From positions 1-45,701 of the forward strand of contig JAJYXU010000084.1 in assembly GCA_021801605.1 (NCBI GenBank): a stretch of DNA of 45,701 nt. The letters are read 5' to 3'. Source of the DNA: Bacteroidota bacterium. GTDB lineage: Bacteria; Bacteroidota; Ignavibacteria; Ignavibacteriales; Melioribacteraceae. Made by a program: the position numbers and the translations under genes. This document shows, piece by piece, positions 32,150-43,270 of this stretch. The stretch's first letter is position 1, and every line of letters starts with the position of its first letter. The notes under the pieces are model-generated. The model did no database searches. It was not told where the DNA came from and saw nothing but the letters and a program-made list of their open reading frames with translations.

Positions 32150-32244
32150 GGCATCTCTAAAACTTCAAAAGCTAATCTGTGAAAATCTGTTTTTATCCGC
32201 TTTATCCGTGTCTCATTTTTTAAAAAATAGTTTTTAGAGATGCC
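32150..32244. mobile_element. MITE-like element C, inserted in the ribF end
   Basis: A 95 bp element with inverted repeats GGCATCTCTAAAACT (32150-32164) and AGTTTTTAGAGATGCC (32229-32244), differing by one extra T. It is flanked by the direct repeat CTAAT (32145-32149 and 32245-32249), a probable target-site duplication. The interior has AATCTGTGAAAATCTG at 32174-32189, matching elements A and B. The right end overlaps ribF: the final codons RASLKTIF and the stop come from the element or its edge. It carries no gene. Confidence 0.75.
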
Positions 32245-33167
32245 CTAATGATTTCCTGAGCTGTTTGTTTATCAATTTCTATCTGATGAATCAACGCCTC
32301 TTTCGATTCAAATCTAACCTCATCACGCAACCGTTTTAGAAATTCTACTTTCATAGATTTTCCATAAATATCACAATCGAAATTCAATAGATGAGCTTCG
32401 AGAACCAGTTCGTGTTTATTTTCAAACGTCGGTCTATATCCGATGTTCATTATTCCAATATGTTTTTCATCTTTCAGAAAACAGTCAACAACATAAACGC
32501 CGTTTTTGGGGACTGCTTTCCTCGGTTCATCCAGCTTAATGTTAGCCGTTGGAAAACCAAGTGTTCTTCCGCGCTGAGCACCAATTACAACTTTACCCGA
32601 AAAAGAATAATTTCGTCCCAAAAATAAATTGGCTCGTTCAACATTTCCTTCAGCAAGAGCATTTCTAATTTTTGTTGAGCTGATAATTTCTCCGTTCAAA
32701 CTTTCTGCCGATACATCGGTAACATCAAAATTATTAAGTCTGCCAACTTTACTGAGAATATTAACATCGCCCAATCTATCTTTGCCAAATTTATGATCGT
32801 GTCCGATAACCATATGAGCAGCGCCGATCTTCTCCACAATGAATCGTTTAATAAATTCATCCGAAGTTAGTTGTGAAAACTCTTTAGTAAAGTTTATCAC
32901 CATCAAATTTTCAATCCCCGCACTTTCAAGGATTTCTTTTTTTTCATCAAGCGATGTTAAAAGTTTCATATCAAAATCTTTTGAAAGAACAAAACGTGGA
33001 TGCGGTTCAAATGTAACAACAAAACCGTTTCCGTTTTTTTGGGCTGCAGTTTTTTTTACTTCATTAAGAATTTTTAAGTGCCCAAGGTGCAAACCATCAA
33101 ACGATCCAACAGTTACAACCGCATTTCTTGTATTTATATTTTCAGAAACTTCTGTATAAACTTTCAT
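32220..33167 (-). CDS. ribF: bifunctional riboflavin kinase/FAD synthetase
   Basis: A 315-residue enzyme that makes FMN from riboflavin and then FAD. The N-terminal nucleotidyltransferase domain has GSFDGLHLGHLKIL (HxGH motif), FVVTFEPHPR and ISSTKIRNALAEG; the C-terminal flavokinase domain has GRTLGFPTANIKL and KNGVYVV...IGIMNIGYRPTF. The last about seven codons and the TAA lie within mobile element C, so the natural C-terminus has been replaced, although all conserved parts remain. The ATG is one base past the truB stop. Confidence 0.95.
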   Translation of the reverse strand: MKVYTEVSENINTRNAVVTVGSFDGLHLGHLKILNEVKKTAAQKNGNGFVVTFEPHPRFVLSKDFDMKLLTSLDEKKEILESAGIENLMVINFTKEFSQLTSDEFIKRFIVEKIGAAHMVIGHDHKFGKDRLGDVNILSKVGRLNNFDVTDVSAESLNGEIISSTKIRNALAEGNVERANLFLGRNYSFSGKVVIGAQRGRTLGFPTANIKLDEPRKAVPKNGVYVVDCFLKDEKHIGIMNIGYRPTFENKHELVLEAHLLNFDCDIYGKSMKVEFLKRLRDEVRFESKEALIHQIEIDKQTAQEIIRASLKTIF

Positions 33168-33168
33168 T

Positions 33169-33894
33169 TCAATTCAATTGGGGAACAAGATAATAATTTT
33201 TTGCAAACTCTTTGAACTCATCGAGCGTTAGTGCGTCTTCCACTTTAAACTCACCAATTTGAGTTCGTCTCAATTCTTTTAAGTAAGCCCCGCATCTAAG
33301 CTGCTGTCCAAAGTCGTGTGCAATTACTCTAATATAAGTCCCTTTAGAACAGCTTATTTCAAAATGAACGTCGGGCAGATCAATTTTTGTTATTTTAAAC
33401 TTTGTAACAATAACTTCTCGTGCTTCTCTTTCAACTTCTCTTCCTTTACGCGCCAGTTTATAAAGAGGTTGTCCGTTATGTTTGATAGCCGAATACATTG
33501 GCGGCATCTGCAAAATATTTCCAAGGAACAGGTCGCGTGTTTTAAGAATTTCACTTTCTGTAATGTGCTCGTAACTATTATCAGAATCAAATTTACGCTC
33601 ACCATCGAATGATGATGTTGTTTTTCCCAGCGTAAAAATTCCGGTATAAGTTTTAGCAAGATCCTGAACTGTAGAAATTTCCTTTGTCTTTCTTCCAGTA
33701 CAAACTATTACTAAACCGGTTGCATTAGGATCCAGAGTTCCGGCATGCCCGACTTTTTTTACACCGATAGTTTTTCTTACTTTATAAACACAATCAAAAG
33801 AACTCTTTCTGAGAGCTTTATCAATAAGAATAATCTCACCGGCAACAAAATCCGGCTCAATTTCAGCTATCGTATTCTTCGCTATCGCTTTCAT
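33169..33894 (-). CDS. truB: tRNA pseudouridine-55 synthase
   Basis: A 241-residue enzyme that makes pseudouridine 55 in the T-loop of tRNAs. The conserved segments are GEIILIDKALRKSSFDCVYKVRK, the catalytic aspartate in VGHAGTLDPNATGLVIVCTGRKTK, KTYTGIFTLGKTTSSFD, MPPMYSAIKHNGQPLYKLARKG and the CSKGTYIRVIAHDFG block. I use the ATG at 33894; one at 33930 would add 12 residues. Either way the gene overlaps the end of rbfA, by 32 or 68 bases. The PUA domain at the C-terminus is short or absent, as in many Bacteroidota. Confidence 0.93.
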   Translation of the reverse strand: MKAIAKNTIAEIEPDFVAGEIILIDKALRKSSFDCVYKVRKTIGVKKVGHAGTLDPNATGLVIVCTGRKTKEISTVQDLAKTYTGIFTLGKTTSSFDGERKFDSDNSYEHITESEILKTRDLFLGNILQMPPMYSAIKHNGQPLYKLARKGREVEREAREVIVTKFKITKIDLPDVHFEISCSKGTYIRVIAHDFGQQLRCGAYLKELRRTQIGEFKVEDALTLDEFKEFAKNYYLVPQLN

Positions 33895-34222
33895 GAATTT
33901 TTTTGAACAATCCTTCCATCTTTTCAACATAGTCTAATGTATCATCTATAAAAAAATGGAGTTCCGGAACAAATCTAAGTTGGATTCTTCCGGCGAGTTG
34001 AGTTCTGATTAAACCTTTAAGTTCGTTAACGCTTTCCAAAACTTTTGTACGTTTCTCTTTATCAAAAACCGAGATATAGATTTTTGTGTGTTTTAGATCC
34101 GGACTAACTTTAACATTAGTTACGGTTATAAGACTCAGTTTTGGATCTTGAAGTTTGTGAAGAAAAATTAAACTGAGTTCTTCTTTAATGAGACTCGAAA
34201 CTTTATCTAATCTATGAGACAT
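33863..34222 (-). CDS. rbfA: ribosome-binding factor A
   Basis: A 119-residue KH-fold assembly factor of the small ribosomal subunit. Recognisable segments are SHRLDKVSSLIKEELSLIF, LSLITVTNVKVSPDLKHTKIYISVF and the C-terminal LRFVPELHFFIDDTLDYVEKMEGLFKKI. It sits 2 bases after infB and overlaps truB, the canonical order in this operon. Confidence 0.95.
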   Translation of the reverse strand: MSHRLDKVSSLIKEELSLIFLHKLQDPKLSLITVTNVKVSPDLKHTKIYISVFDKEKRTKVLESVNELKGLIRTQLAGRIQLRFVPELHFFIDDTLDYVEKMEGLFKKIHESDSEEYDS

Positions 34223-34224
34223 TT

Positions 34225-36831
34225 CTACTCTAATTTCTTCTTGGTTTCAATCATTTTATAAGCTTCAATAATATCGCCGGGTTTAATATCATTAAAGTTG
34301 GCAATACTAACACCGCATTCAAATCCTTTTTCAACTTCACGCACATCATCTTTAAATCTTCTCAACGAACTGATTTCGCCTTCGTAAACCGCAATTCCGT
34401 CTCTGAACAAACGGACTTTATTGCTTCTCATAATTTTTCCGTCTTGAACGGAACATCCGGCAATTGTACCTGCTTTTGGTACCTTAAAAATATCTTTGAC
34501 CTGGAGCGTTGCAACAACTTCTTCGGAAACAACCGGAGAAAGCATTCCTTCGAGAGCAGATTTTATTTCGTTGATGGCATCATAAATAATGTTGTAAAGA
34601 CGAATATCAACTTTTTCAGACTCGGCAAGTTTACGCGCGTTCGTATTCGGTCTTACATGGAATCCTACAATTATAGCGCCCGATGCTGCCGCTAAAAGAA
34701 CATCACCTTCAGAAATTGCGCCGACTGCTTTATGAATTACGCGAACGGAAACTTCCTGGTTAGATAATTTCATCAACGAATCCGATAATGCTTCGATTGA
34801 ACCATCCACATCGCCTTTAACAATCACCGGCAATTCTTTAAATCCGCCGTGACTGATTTGATTTGCAATTTCATCAAGAGTAATATGATGAACCTGGCGA
34901 TGATCTTGTTCGCGTTTTAACTGCATACGCTTCAAACTAATTTCGCGTGCTTCACGTTCAGATTCTGCAATGTGGAATGTATCTCCCGCCTGCGGTGCAG
35001 ATTCAAACCCAAGAACAAGAACCGGAGTTGAAGGGCCTGCTTCAAAAACTTTTTTACCGCGCTCATCAAACATTGCTCGTACACGTCCGTGCACAATTCC
35101 TGCTATAAACGGATCGCCAACTTTCAAAGTTCCTTTTTGAACAAGAACGGTTGCGGTAACACCTTTTCCTTTATCAAGCTGAGATTCAATTATTGTTCCG
35201 CGCGCTAAACGGTCTGGATTTGCTTTCAAGTCGAGCAATTCAGCTTCAAGAACTAATTTTTCTAAAAGGAGATCAACATTCTTTCCAAGTTTGGCAGAGA
35301 CTTCAACACACTGATATTTTCCGCCCCACTCTTCAACTAAAATATTTCTTTCTGCAAGTTGCTGCTTAATTCTTTCAATATTGGAATTTGGTTTATCAAT
35401 TTTATTGATCGCAATAATTATTGGAACATTTGCGGCAAGGGCGTGATTGATTGCTTCAACAGTTTGAGGCATCACTGCGTCATCTGCAGCTACAATTAAT
35501 ACTACAATATCCGTAACACGAGCGCCGCGTGCACGCATAGCCGTAAATGCTTCGTGACCGGGTGTGTCTAAAAATGTTACTTGTCTGTTCTCATCGATCA
35601 TAACTTTATAAGCGCCAATGTGCTGTGTAATTCCACCGGCTTCTCCGGCAACAACATTTGCGCGGCGTATATAATCCAGCAAAGATGTTTTACCATGATC
35701 TACGTGCCCCATAATTGTAACAACAGGCGGGCGAAATTTAAGTGTTTCTACCGGGTCCGGAACGTCGGCATCAAGTTCCGATTGATATTCTTCTTCAAGT
35801 TCTATTTCAAATCCAAAATCATCGGCTATCAAAGTTATAGTTTCAACATCAAGACGTTGATTGATAGAAACCATCAGACCTAATCCAATACATTTTTGAA
35901 TTACATCGCTTACGGAAACGCCCATTAAATTTGCGAGTTCGTTCACGGCAATAAATTCACTGACTTTAATTTTTGTTTTATCTAATTCTTTCTGCTGAAG
36001 AATTTGATTCTGAATCTCTTCTTTCTCTTTTCTTTTTTTCTTTCTTGCAGATGCTCTACCGCCAACAGCAGATTCATCTATACTAAGAAGAGTTCTTTTG
36101 ATTGCATCTTCAACTTCGCGCTTATCAATTTCCAGGCGTTTAATTTTTCTTTTTTTCTTAGCGACGATCACTTCTTCGGGAGCCTGACCGGGAGTAGTTG
36201 TTTTCTTTTTGGTCTTAAGAATTTTCTTTTTCTTTTTATTTTTTTCCGCTTCTTCCTGAGTTGCAGTTAACGGCTGAGCCGGTTTTTGAGTAGCTGTTAC
36301 TTCTTTAGATTCAACCTTATCGCGCCGCGGTTTAAGATCAACTCTGCCAACAATAGTTAAACCTTTTCTTCTTCCTTCGAGAGCAATTTCAGTTTCGGTC
36401 CTGTAAGATTTTTTTTCTTCAACCGGTTCTACAACTGGTTCTTCAATTACGGGCGCTGGAGATTCCTCAGCAGGTTCCTCTGGCTGGATTGTTTCAACCA
36501 CCGGCTCAACAAGAACTTCTTCAAGTTTCTGCGCAACAGGTTTTTCTTCTATAACTTTTGGTGCAATTTCAACAGGGGTTTCGGGCTCATCGTGTTCTGT
36601 TCTTTTTTTCTGAAAATCAGAAATCTTCTTATAATGTTTTTCAGCTTTTTCAATATCTTTTTTGAAAAACGATTTAATTTCCGTAACCATCTCATCGGTC
36701 AATAAAGCCATGTGAGATTTTACATCATAACCTTTCTTTTGTAAAAGTTCCACTAACGATTCAGTAGAAAGGTTATACTCTGCAGCAAATTTGTAGAGAC
36801 GTAATTTTTTTTCTTTAGCAGTTTCCGGCAT
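34225..36831 (-). CDS. infB: translation initiation factor IF-2
   Basis: An 868-residue GTPase that brings initiator tRNA to the 30S subunit. The N-terminal IF2_N domain (about 8-55) is followed by a Pro/Glu/Val-rich linker with Lys-rich blocks, a second IF2_N-type helix bundle, then the G domain with GHVDHGKTSLL (about residue 375), DTPGHEAF and NKIDK, and C-terminal beta-barrel domains that bind fMet-tRNA. The initiator tRNA itself is encoded in this window. The ATG lacks a clear Shine-Dalgarno sequence, and the 133-base gap upstream contains element D. Confidence 0.97.
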   Translation of the reverse strand: MPETAKEKKLRLYKFAAEYNLSTESLVELLQKKGYDVKSHMALLTDEMVTEIKSFFKKDIEKAEKHYKKISDFQKKRTEHDEPETPVEIAPKVIEEKPVAQKLEEVLVEPVVETIQPEEPAEESPAPVIEEPVVEPVEEKKSYRTETEIALEGRRKGLTIVGRVDLKPRRDKVESKEVTATQKPAQPLTATQEEAEKNKKKKKILKTKKKTTTPGQAPEEVIVAKKKRKIKRLEIDKREVEDAIKRTLLSIDESAVGGRASARKKKRKEKEEIQNQILQQKELDKTKIKVSEFIAVNELANLMGVSVSDVIQKCIGLGLMVSINQRLDVETITLIADDFGFEIELEEEYQSELDADVPDPVETLKFRPPVVTIMGHVDHGKTSLLDYIRRANVVAGEAGGITQHIGAYKVMIDENRQVTFLDTPGHEAFTAMRARGARVTDIVVLIVAADDAVMPQTVEAINHALAANVPIIIAINKIDKPNSNIERIKQQLAERNILVEEWGGKYQCVEVSAKLGKNVDLLLEKLVLEAELLDLKANPDRLARGTIIESQLDKGKGVTATVLVQKGTLKVGDPFIAGIVHGRVRAMFDERGKKVFEAGPSTPVLVLGFESAPQAGDTFHIAESEREAREISLKRMQLKREQDHRQVHHITLDEIANQISHGGFKELPVIVKGDVDGSIEALSDSLMKLSNQEVSVRVIHKAVGAISEGDVLLAAASGAIIVGFHVRPNTNARKLAESEKVDIRLYNIIYDAINEIKSALEGMLSPVVSEEVVATLQVKDIFKVPKAGTIAGCSVQDGKIMRSNKVRLFRDGIAVYEGEISSLRRFKDDVREVEKGFECGVSIANFNDIKPGDIIEAYKMIETKKKLE

Positions 36832-36964: not shown

Positions 36965-38212
36965 TTATTCTTCTTCTTCAAATTGATTTTCAAGAATTTC
37001 AATTATCTGTTTAGCTTTTTCTTCATCAAGCCCTTCAATCTCTTTGAGCTTATCAATTCCGGCGGCAAGAACTTCCAGTGCTGTATCTAACCTGTTGTTG
37101 ATTAGCAAGTCCACCATCTCTGTAGTTAATTCTTCACGGAGTTCTATAAGTTCAATATCTTCGTCATATTCTTCGAACGGCTTTTCTAACCTGATCACTT
37201 CTATTTCGTAACCGCTTAGTTTAATTGCAAGACGAATGTTAACGCCGTTCCGTCCGACTATTAACGATACTTGATCGCTATCGGCAGTTACAACACATTT
37301 CTTGGCATCTTCATCAATCTCGATCTGTTTTAATTTTGCCGGGGCAATGCACCTTTGGATGAAAACGACCGGGTCTTCCGAGTAGTTGATGACATCAATA
37401 TTTTCATTATTCAACTCGCGTACAATTGCATGAATACGTACACCCTTCATTCCAACGCAAGCGCCAACTGCGTCAATACGGGGATCGCTCGATTCAACTG
37501 CAATTTTGGCTCTTTCACCGGGTTCGCGTGCTATACCTTTGATTTCAATTACACCGTCATAAATTTCCGGAATTTCGATTTCAAACAATCTTCTCAAGAA
37601 AAGATTATCCGCACGCGAAACTAAAATGACCGGTCCGTTCGGAGTTTTTTTAACATCTTTAACAACAGCACGCACCGTATCACCTTTTCTGTATTTTTCA
37701 CGCGGAATTTGTTCGTGGCGCGGTAAAAGCAATTCGTTCTTGTTATGATTAACCAGTACATCATTTCTTCTTACCTGATAAATATCGCCTACAACAATCT
37801 CACCAAGCATTTCAACGTATTCATTGTAAATAATATCTTTTTCAATCTCTCTAATTTTTTGATTCAAACTTTGGCGTGCAAGGTTTATTAATCTTCTTCC
37901 AAATTCTTTCAATTCAATTTTCTGAACAAAATCTTCGCCTACTTCAAGTCCGTCTTCATTTCCTTTTTCATTCAATTCATCAATACTTATTTCAGTAGCC
38001 GGATCATTTACGGTATCAACTATAGTTCGTTCAAGAAATATTTCTATATCTCCCTTGTCCATGTTAACAACAACATCATATTTGGCTTCTAATCCAAATT
38101 TCTTTTTTACCATAATCCCAAAGATTTCTTCTATGATCCCTGCAAGAACGTCTTTATCAAGACTTTTCTCGCGGACCATTTGAGCAAAGGATTCTACTAT
38201 TTCGGTGTTCAT
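36965..38212 (-). CDS. nusA: transcription termination/antitermination factor NusA
   Basis: A 415-residue RNA polymerase-binding protein that modulates pausing, termination and antitermination. In order: N-terminal polymerase-binding domain (1-about 135), S1 domain (VVGDIYQVRRNDVLV...), KH1 (IDAVGACVGMKGVRIHAIVRELNNENIDVI) and KH2 (KKCVVTADSDQVSLIVGRNGVNIRLA), then an acidic tail with one helix-hairpin-helix-like segment (DKLKEIEGLDEEKAKQIIEIL). GAGGAG precedes the ATG. The operon leader holds a terminator-like hairpin, a possible target of NusA itself. Confidence 0.97.
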   Translation of the reverse strand: MNTEIVESFAQMVREKSLDKDVLAGIIEEIFGIMVKKKFGLEAKYDVVVNMDKGDIEIFLERTIVDTVNDPATEISIDELNEKGNEDGLEVGEDFVQKIELKEFGRRLINLARQSLNQKIREIEKDIIYNEYVEMLGEIVVGDIYQVRRNDVLVNHNKNELLLPRHEQIPREKYRKGDTVRAVVKDVKKTPNGPVILVSRADNLFLRRLFEIEIPEIYDGVIEIKGIAREPGERAKIAVESSDPRIDAVGACVGMKGVRIHAIVRELNNENIDVINYSEDPVVFIQRCIAPAKLKQIEIDEDAKKCVVTADSDQVSLIVGRNGVNIRLAIKLSGYEIEVIRLEKPFEEYDEDIELIELREELTTEMVDLLINNRLDTALEVLAAGIDKLKEIEGLDEEKAKQIIEILENQFEEEE

Positions 38213-38229: not shown

Positions 38230-38673
38230 TCAAAAACTAATTAAAACTTTTGCTTTGGTAATGCTGCTAAAATTTATTTTGTATTCCGCCTCTTTGACCG
38301 CGAAGAAGAGATTCTCTCCTTCGATGCGGAGAAGTTTAGCGGTTAATTTTTTTTCGCCGTCTTCGATATACTCAATTTCAAATTTCCGGTTAATGTGTTT
38401 AAAGTATTGTACCAAAAATTTAAGCGGTCGCTCAGCACCGGGCGAAGAAACATCCAGCCGGTAATTCGATCCGACTAAATTTTCTAATTCGATTGCTTCG
38501 TTAAGGTTCCGGCTAACATTTGCGCAATCAAGCGCAGTGATTCCTTTTTCGCCATCTATAAAAACCTCAATGATTCGCAGATGATTGTCGCCGCGGAGGA
38601 CCAAATCAACCAGTATGAAGCCGTGAGCTTTTACAATTTCTTCGATTCTGTTATTAATTTGCTGCTTTTCCAT
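38230..38673 (-). CDS. rimP: ribosome maturation factor RimP
   Basis: A 147-residue protein that assists maturation of the 30S subunit. The family is recognised from the N-terminal domain (IEEIVKAHGFILVDLVLRGDNHLRIIEVFIDGEKGITALDCANVSRNLNEAIE) and YRLDVSSPGAERPL, followed by a small SH3-like C-terminal domain. It heads the rimP-nusA-infB operon. No Shine-Dalgarno sequence is seen at the ATG; only 16 bases separate it from the leader hairpin. Confidence 0.95.
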   Translation of the reverse strand: MEKQQINNRIEEIVKAHGFILVDLVLRGDNHLRIIEVFIDGEKGITALDCANVSRNLNEAIELENLVGSNYRLDVSSPGAERPLKFLVQYFKHINRKFEIEYIEDGEKKLTAKLLRIEGENLFFAVKEAEYKINFSSITKAKVLISF

Positions 38674-38675
38674 AT

Positions 38676-38706
38676 TCTATAAATAAAAATCGCCCTCGAG
38701 GGGCGA
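38676..38706 (-). terminator. terminator-like hairpin in the rimP leader
   Basis: On the minus strand TCGCCC, loop CTCGA and GGGCGA form a 6 bp GC-rich stem (38706-38690), followed directly by TTTTTATTTATAG. This is a textbook intrinsic terminator. It could end hemW transcripts, but it also lies downstream of the rimP promoter at 38718-38749 and so would be in the rimP leader RNA. Confidence 0.75.
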
Positions 38707-38717
38707 AATGGACGGCA

Positions 38718-38749
38718 CAAAGGTAGGAAGAATTGCCAGAAGAAGCAAA
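38718..38749 (-). promoter_or_regulatory. Bacteroidota-type promoter of rimP-nusA operon
   Basis: On the minus strand TTTG (38749-38746), exactly 20 bases, then TACCTTTG (38725-38718). It matches the same consensus and spacing as the rpmE promoter. Initiation would be near 38712, giving a leader of about 40 bases that begins just before the hairpin at 38706. Confidence 0.72.
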
Positions 38750-38775: not shown

Positions 38776-39909
38776 TTAGCTTTCTAATTTAATAAGTATC
38801 TCATCGCAGATTGCGTAACCTTTGGGAGTAAAGGAAAGCAGATTATTTTTTGATGTGAGAAAATTTTCTTCTTCCAACTGATTAAGAAAATTTTTGTTCT
38901 GCTCAAACCAATTGCCGCCGAAAAGGTTATTCAGTTCCATCAGATCAAGTCCTTTGCTTCGAAGTGCAAGCATTACATATTCATCAAGCATTTCATTTTC
39001 AGAAAGGACTTCCTCGCCTACAACCGCATTTCTTTTTGATTCAACAGCACTGTTGTAAAAATTTAATGCAGAATAATTCCACCACCGTTTTCCATTTACA
39101 AATGAATGGGCTGATGTGCCAAAACTTATGTAATCTTTATAATGCCAGTATGCGTTATTATGAATGCACTCTTTTCCATTGCGTGCAAAGTTGGAAACTT
39201 CATACTGATCGAAACCGTTTTGAGTTAGAAAGTCAATCGTTAATTCATAAAGATCGGCATCATAATCCTCGCTTTGCATTTTTACTTTGCCGTCTAAAAC
39301 CATTTTATTAAGAATTGTGCCATGCTCAAGAATTAAACTATATGTAGAAATATGCTTGATCGGAAGCTGTATGGCTTGTTTAAGGTTTGAACGCCAAATC
39401 TCTTTTGTCTGTTTTGGTAAATTAAAAATTAGATCAATACTAATGTTATCGAATCCCGAATCCGCCGCATCGTAAACAGTTTTAATTGCTGTCTCTGAAT
39501 CGTGAATGCGCGTAAGAAATTTTAATTCATCTTCATCAAAAGATTGAATACCGATACTAATCCGGTTAATTCCAATTTTACGGAAGGCGAGTAATTTTTC
39601 TCGGTTTACAGTTCCCGGATTAGTCTCAAGTGTTATCTCCGCATTATCATCAACAATAAAATTTTTCTTCAGATGCAGAATTATTTCTGCGATGTATTCG
39701 GGTTCCATAAAAGAGGGAGTGCCGCCGCCAAAAAAGATTGAGATAATTTTTCTTTCTGCGGAATATTTCTCCGCGAAAAAATTGATCTCTTTTTTCAGCG
39801 CAATGAGATATGAAGAGACATTTTCGTAAGATACAATAGAATAGAAATCGCAATAGATGCATTTGTGATCGCAGAAAGGAATGTGAATATAGATTGCTGT
39901 TTCTTTCAA
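38776..39909 (-). CDS. hemW: radical SAM HemW-like heme chaperone
   Basis: A 377-residue radical SAM protein. The start YIHIPFCDHKCIYCDF has the CxxxCxxC cluster ligands at Cys13, Cys17 and Cys20, a HemW/HemN feature; GGGTPS, the TLETNPGT strand and RISIGIQSFDEDELKFLTRIHD follow, and the C-terminal winged-helix HemN_C domain is present. HemW proteins bind heme and deliver it to respiratory enzymes, and are often mislabelled as coproporphyrinogen dehydrogenase. The start is TTG (39909), with an in-frame stop a few codons upstream; no alternative is credible. Confidence 0.9.
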   Translation of the reverse strand: MKETAIYIHIPFCDHKCIYCDFYSIVSYENVSSYLIALKKEINFFAEKYSAERKIISIFFGGGTPSFMEPEYIAEIILHLKKNFIVDDNAEITLETNPGTVNREKLLAFRKIGINRISIGIQSFDEDELKFLTRIHDSETAIKTVYDAADSGFDNISIDLIFNLPKQTKEIWRSNLKQAIQLPIKHISTYSLILEHGTILNKMVLDGKVKMQSEDYDADLYELTIDFLTQNGFDQYEVSNFARNGKECIHNNAYWHYKDYISFGTSAHSFVNGKRWWNYSALNFYNSAVESKRNAVVGEEVLSENEMLDEYVMLALRSKGLDLMELNNLFGGNWFEQNKNFLNQLEEENFLTSKNNLLSFTPKGYAICDEILIKLES

Positions 39910-43141: not shown

Positions 43142-43214
<73 letters not shown>

Positions 43215-43228
43215 CAAGCAAGTAAAAA

Positions 43229-43270
43229 AAACCTTTGTAAGCAAATAACTTACAGAGGTTTTCTTTTTTC
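43229..43270 (+). terminator. bidirectional terminator between tRNA and accessory genes
   Basis: AACCTTTGTAAG (43230-43241) and CTTACAGAGGTT (43249-43260) form a 12-position stem with one G-U wobble and a 7-base loop. It is followed by TTCTTTTTT on the plus strand and, read the other way, by a run of eight T. It can stop transcripts from both sides. Confidence 0.88.

What the first reader, a model, noticed from the sequence alone, without database searches (positions are those of the whole stretch)
38673..38749. Promoter-proximal terminator in the leader of rimP-nusA-infB
A consensus promoter (TTTG, 20 bases, TACCTTTG) should start RNA near 38712. The RNA would at once form a GC-rich hairpin with a U-run (38706-38676), ending about at the rimP start codon. 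A hemW terminator would not need to lie inside the next leader. Since NusA enhances pausing and termination at such hairpins and autoregulates its operon in E. coli, NusA-dependent attenuation is a reasonable hypothesis here.
Basis: partly seen in the sequence, partly recalled or inferred. Interest (0 to 1): 0.62.

Follow-up and report, generated by a model that had tools for sequence, protein, structure and literature searches.

The report
Conserved promoter-proximal attenuator for nusA operon
Right after its promoter, the operon for the transcription factor NusA carries a tiny stop signal that is conserved in nearly all relatives examined and moves to nusA itself when the first gene (rimP) is missing or moved, which points to NusA limiting its own production; this is a minimal Bacteroidota version of a regulatory trick known in other bacteria.

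Summary
On the minus strand a Bacteroidota-type promoter (TTTG, 20 nt, TACCTTTG) is followed within about 12 nt by a 6-bp GC-rich hairpin and TTTTTATTT, ending 7 nt before the rimP ATG. It is not the hemW terminator. All 78 Ignavibacteriales rimP loci with upstream DNA carry the same hairpin and U-tract, whatever gene lies upstream, and 714 kb of held DNA contains no copy elsewhere. The hairpin is locked to the promoter (a -7-like element 9-15 nt before the stem in 74/77), not to the start codon (distance varies up to 136 nt). Other Bacteroidota families keep a promoter-proximal hairpin with U-run but use different stem sequences. In lineages that lost rimP, or where rimP lies away from nusA, the hairpin stands before nusA-infB instead, so it tracks nusA, not rimP. 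With only about 6 nt before the stem there is no room for an aptamer, leader peptide or antiterminator, so control must act through RNA polymerase and its factors. NusA-stimulated termination in its own leader is reported for B. subtilis, and rimP-leader terminators are described in other bacteria. Best reading: a minimal, Bacteroidota-wide NusA feedback attenuator. Conservation is shown; termination and NusA dependence are inferred.

The parts
38746..38749 (-). -33 element TTTG of the predicted promoter
   Evidence: Sequence; TTTG or a 3-of-4 match (mostly CTTG) at exactly 20 nt from the -7 element in 64 of 77 loci
38718..38725 (-). -7 element TACCTTTG (Bacteroidota consensus TAnnTTTG)
   Evidence: Sequence; a TAnnTTW-type element lies 9-15 nt before the stem in 74 of 77 loci
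38711..38713 (-). predicted transcription start
   Evidence: Inference from the -7 position; not measured
38690..38706 (-). terminator-type hairpin TCGCCC-CTCGA-GGGCGA
   Evidence: CGCCC/GGGCG present in all 78 loci
38681..38689 (-). U-tract TTTTTATTT; predicted RNA release near 38683-38681
   Evidence: Six T positions of the tract invariant in 77 loci, one interrupting purine in 74 of 77
38230..38673 (-). rimP
   Evidence: Pfam RimP_N 1.5e-15
36965..38212 (-). nusA (NusA_N, S1, KH domains), proposed regulator and target
   Evidence: Pfam
34225..36831 (-). infB (IF-2)
   Evidence: Pfam
33863..34222 (-). rbfA
   Evidence: Pfam
33169..33930 (-). truB
   Evidence: Pfam
32220..33167 (-). ribF
   Evidence: Pfam

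Best explanation
The element is a promoter-proximal transcription attenuator of the rimP-nusA-infB operon. RNA polymerase starts near 38712, makes about 6 nt, then a 17-nt hairpin and a U-tract interrupted by one purine. Part of the polymerases stop there and release an RNA of about 30 nt before reaching the start codon; the rest read through and express the operon. The leader has no room for an RNA sensor, so the stop/go decision must be made by the polymerase and factors bound to it. The most likely factor is NusA, which stimulates such weak intrinsic terminators: high NusA gives more termination and less operon mRNA, low NusA gives readthrough. Shown here: anatomy, conservation, locking to the promoter, tracking of nusA. 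Inferred: the start site, actual termination, NusA as effector.
For: (1) 78/78 Ignavibacteriales rimP loci carry it and 714 kb holds no other copy. (2) None of 49 other terminator-like sites has a TAnnTTTG element close upstream. (3) The promoter-hairpin gap is fixed while the hairpin-to-start gap varies; all 15 loci with starts 25 nt or more away keep a gap of 11-13 nt. (4) Other families of the class and phylum keep hairpin + U-run with different stems: 46 of 56 by rule, eight more by eye. (5) When rimP is absent (two families, 4 genomes) the promoter + hairpin sit before nusA; in one f11 genome whose rimP follows the upstream gene directly, a hairpin + T-rich run lies between rimP and nusA, 21 nt before nusA; in another with rimP away from nusA, rimP has no such leader. 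Outside those lineages only 2 of about 150 nusA starts show any such site. (6) NusA autoregulation by NusA-stimulated leader termination in B. subtilis, and the effect of NusA at weak hairpins and interrupted U-tracts (PMC12288461). (7) rimP-leader terminators are described in Firmicutes and Gammaproteobacteria (PMC2965389).
Against: No RNA data. The stem is only modestly weaker than other terminators in these genomes (-10.3 against -11.7 kcal/mol) and its U-tract is not worse, so weakness by itself does not mark it as NusA-dependent. The hairpin forms at about +7 to +23, where sigma may still be bound and NusA may not yet be loaded. The stem sequence is nearly invariant within the order, so classical covariation is absent there. 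infB and rbfA stay linked to nusA in the lineages checked, so infB as regulator is not separated from nusA. In the genome with rimP away from nusA, the nusA-side hairpin could instead be the terminator of the preceding polymerase gene.
Confidence: 0.66

Rival explanations
1. A promoter-proximal attenuator, but not sensed by NusA: termination is set by NusG, ppGpp/NTP level, sigma retention or polymerase speed, coupling the operon to growth rate.
For: The short leader allows only polymerase-linked sensing; the hairpin forms very early, where sigma may still be present; weakness relative to other terminators is small.
Against: The leader moves with nusA rather than rimP; NusA autoregulation by the same means is reported in B. 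subtilis (PMC12288461).
Confidence: 0.2
2. The hairpin is a 5' mRNA element: it stabilises the transcript or regulates translation of rimP (binding site for RimP or another protein, or start-codon occlusion).
For: It lies at the extreme 5' end and usually 17-18 nt before the rimP start; in the window UCCAU can pair with AUGGA of the start.
Against: The U-tract is nearly invariant, which a stability stem does not need; distance to the start codon varies up to 136 nt while distance to the promoter does not; pairing with the start region is not above chance across loci; the element appears before nusA when rimP is absent.
Confidence: 0.1
3. It is the ordinary terminator of hemW, lying by accident within the next leader.
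For: hemW ends at 38776 and no other terminator-like site was found between hemW and rimP.
Against: hemW is close upstream in only a minority of relatives, yet the leader is in all; the hairpin is locked to a downstream-facing promoter.
Confidence: 0.02

Closest known systems
NusA autoregulatory leader terminator of B. subtilis (Mondal et al. 2016, as reported in the review PMC12288461)
   Same: Same operon type; terminator in the 5' leader; proposed feedback by NusA-stimulated intrinsic termination.
   Different: B. subtilis has a leader of about 180 nt (PMC2965389); here the leader before the stem is about 6 nt. NusA effect not tested here.
rimP-leader (Naville and Gautheret 2010, PMC2965389)
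   Same: Upstream of rimP-nusA-infB; short GC stem with conserved GGG/CCC core and U-stretch; no visible antiterminator; close to the start codon.
   Different: In Ignavibacteriales the polarity is reversed (gCCC...GGGc instead of GGGc...gCCC); hairpin directly at the promoter; found before nusA when rimP is absent or elsewhere.
Rfam RF01770 (rimP)
   Same: Same gene context by name.
   Different: Own-genome search gave no match to this family at the leader and nothing above its cut-off; Rfam scan of the leader also negative.
Structured 5' element upstream of rimP in Flavobacterium psychrophilum (PMC9723704)
   Same: Same phylum and gene; reported as conserved in Flavobacteriaceae and without Rfam match; sampled rimP loci from the phylum here (f34, Flavobacteriaceae-like by inference) carry GAGGGGAC...GTCCCCTC + U-run.
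   Different: That paper gives no mechanism; the stem sequence differs.

Membership tests
rimP-leader (Naville and Gautheret 2010) | Located in the leader of rimP-nusA-infB | tested here: met
rimP-leader (Naville and Gautheret 2010) | Intrinsic terminator hairpin followed by a U-stretch, 4-130 nt from the gene start | tested here: met
   7 nt between U-tract end and ATG in the window, 16 nt between stem and ATG
rimP-leader (Naville and Gautheret 2010) | Stem motif GGGc(...)gCCC, G-rich 5' arm | tested here: not met
   Window and order-mates have CGCCC(...)GGGCG, reversed polarity; several other families of the class and phylum do have GGG(...)CCC
rimP-leader (Naville and Gautheret 2010) | No antiterminator structure visible | tested here: met
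   About 6 nt precede the stem
Rfam RF01770 rimP | Covariance model score above gathering cut-off | tested here: not met
NusA-autoregulated leader terminator (B. subtilis type) | Termination stimulated by NusA | not testable with these tools
   Needs in vitro transcription or NusA depletion
NusA-autoregulated leader terminator (B. subtilis type) | Terminator sits in the leader of the transcription unit that contains nusA | tested here: met
   before nusA itself where rimP is absent
NusA-autoregulated leader terminator (B. subtilis type) | Suboptimal terminator (weak hairpin or interrupted U-tract) | tested here: inconclusive
   U-tract interrupted by a conserved purine, but strength and U-run are close to those of other terminators in the same genomes

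The most novel reading that the evidence does not exclude
Bacteroidota control NusA with a sensor-free attenuator: promoter, hairpin and U-tract only, about 30 nt of RNA in all, whose stem sequence is fixed within each lineage because NusA (or polymerase with NusA) recognises it specifically, and which has been re-attached to nusA after rimP loss or relocation.
Probability: 0.3. Interest if true: 0.68.

Novelty: new variant of a known kind. Interest (0 to 1): 0.52.

Why it matters
It extends NusA leader attenuation to Bacteroidota, where I found no earlier mechanistic description in the library searched, and in a form so small that it leaves no place for an RNA sensor. The cases of rimP loss or relocation argue from comparison alone that nusA, not rimP, is what the leader serves. 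It gives a clean, short template for testing how NusA or sigma acts on a terminator formed just after promoter escape.

Tried and rejected
hemW terminator: rejected by conservation with differing upstream genes. Start-codon occlusion by UCCAU/AUGGA pairing seen in the window: not above permuted partners across 76 loci. Known Rfam family: none. Weak hairpin as proof of NusA dependence: difference from other terminators is small. Dispersed repeat: the pattern is unique in the genome. Viral copies of rimP: none confirmed. Mondal et al. 2016 is not held in full text and is cited through a review.

Full report
What is there. The window belongs to an Ignavibacteriales-type genome: its NusA is 98% identical to that of a metagenome-assembled Bacteroidetes genome and 81-94% identical to many Melioribacter, Stygiobacter and Ignavibacteria genomes. 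On the minus strand run hemW, rimP, nusA, infB, rbfA, truB and ribF. Between hemW and rimP lies TTTG (38749-38746), a 20-nt spacer, TACCTTTG (38725-38718), then TCGCCC-CTCGA-GGGCGA (38706-38690), TTTTTATTT (38689-38681) and the rimP ATG at 38673. The coordinates of the finding are right. The E. coli-type promoter scan misses the promoter, while the terminator scan finds the hairpin. The predicted RNA 38712-38681 folds only into this hairpin, -10.4 kcal/mol, z -2.76.

Is it more than chance. I collected 80 nusA loci from relatives and read the DNA upstream of rimP. Every locus with enough upstream sequence, 77 by script including the window plus L015 (whose RimP match was partial) and so 78 in all, has CGCCC, a short loop, GGGCG and a T-rich tract. 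In the 714 kb held there is no further copy on either strand, and the window's own genome holds the pattern once. The -33 element lies exactly 20 nt from the -7 element in 64 of 77, and a -7-like element lies 9-15 nt before the stem in 74 of 77. Of 49 other terminator-like sites in the same DNA, none has TAnnTTTG 3-30 nt upstream. Co-directional terminator-like sites within 60 nt of a start codon were found for 71 of 75 rimP genes and 0 of 180 control genes.

It is not the hemW terminator. hemW was found in the flanks of only a minority of loci, and often not next to rimP, while the leader is always there.

It belongs to the promoter, not to the start codon. The hairpin-to-start distance varies up to 136 nt by extrapolated starts, but all 15 loci with starts at least 25 nt away keep the stem 11-13 nt from the -7 element. 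This speaks for a transcriptional rather than translational role. The U-tract points the same way: six of its T positions are invariant in 77 loci. A possible pairing of the RNA's 5' end with the start codon in the window is not above chance across loci.

Phylum-wide spread. A covariance model hits every listed genome of the window's family and order, plus one more family clearly (f12) and one f18 genome weakly but at the right place. Reading the rimP upstream DNA of 56 genomes outside the order shows the same architecture with other stems: GAGGGGAC/GTCCCCTC, GTGGGG/CCCCAC, GTGGGC/GCCCAC, AGCCC/GGGCT, TTGCCC/GGGCAA and so on. A strict rule finds 46 of 56. Eight more (L110, L111, L132, L134, L135, L138, L139, L143) show a hairpin with larger or mismatched loop plus U-run by eye. 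A few rule-based hits in GC-rich genomes far from the start (for example L129, L130, L133) may be chance. A hairpin that persists while its sequence changes on both arms is what a conserved terminator should do. A GGG/CCC core is present in 43 of 46 of these leaders against 16 of 71 other terminator-like sites in the same loci; the sequences are related, so this is descriptive, not a test.

The leader follows nusA. Four genomes of two families have no rimP, even at E up to 10 apart from sub-threshold fragments. In all of them a TAnnTTTG-type promoter and a hairpin with T-run stand upstream of nusA, and infB and rbfA follow nusA in the three genomes whose downstream DNA was taken. In a genome of a third family (f11, G019), rimP starts about 11 nt after the preceding gene without a leader, and a hairpin with T-rich run lies in the rimP-nusA gap, 21 nt before nusA. 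In a relative of that genome (G010), rimP lies elsewhere without nusA behind it and without a hairpin between it and its likely promoter, while a larger hairpin ending in CGGGCTTTTTATTT precedes nusA; that last case is ambiguous because it could end the preceding gene, which looks like DNA polymerase IV. Among 158 nusA starts scanned, only L016 and L034 outside these lineages gave a terminator-like site. So the element serves nusA(-infB), not rimP.

Mechanism. Only about 6 nt lie between the predicted start and the stem, so an aptamer, a leader peptide or an upstream antiterminator cannot fit. The decision must be made by RNA polymerase and what is bound to it. NusA is the best candidate: it promotes hairpin formation and termination, especially at weak or interrupted terminators, and in B. 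subtilis it represses its own expression by termination in the leader (PMC12288461, citing Mondal et al. 2016, not held). The conserved purine in the U-tract fits, but a comparison with other terminators in these genomes shows only slightly weaker stems and no worse U-runs, so this is not decisive. An open question is whether NusA is already on the polymerase at about +25 to +32, when sigma may still be bound.

Relation to known systems. Naville and Gautheret described the rimP-leader as the most ubiquitous attenuator, with a GGGc(...)gCCC stem, no antiterminator, and NusA as likely effector (PMC2965389). The window's leader meets location, hairpin, U-stretch and lack of antiterminator, but has the reversed polarity CCC...GGG, and it is not matched by Rfam RF01770. 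A structured rimP 5' element conserved in Flavobacteriaceae was reported without mechanism (PMC9723704). I therefore call it a new variant of a known kind: it works like the rimP/nusA leader attenuator, but I do not file it as a member of RF01770 or of the GGGc(...)gCCC motif as defined.

Noticed in passing
39973-39951 (-): Strong terminator-like hairpin GAAGGGGCTGAACAAGCCCCTTT + TCTTTTTTAT just after the DUF6588 gene (41074-39998) and before hemW, so hemW may have its own start.
   Followed up: no
43142-43262 (+): tRNA gene (43142-43214) followed by a terminator-like hairpin with T-run at 43228-43262.
   Followed up: no
L159-L163 (genomes G015, G024, G127, G065): Near-complete genomes of two families have no detectable rimP although nusA (and infB, rbfA where checked) is kept; one (G127) shows two nusA loci, both with the leader.
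   Followed up: partly
L103-L158: rimP leader stems across Bacteroidota share a GGG/CCC core but in either polarity, mostly fixed within a family; why polarity flips between families is unexplained.
   Followed up: partly
L165 and L170, reverse strand, about 110-200 nt before nusA: In a genome with rimP away from nusA, the hairpin before nusA is large and holds inner hairpins, unlike the minimal form.
   Followed up: partly
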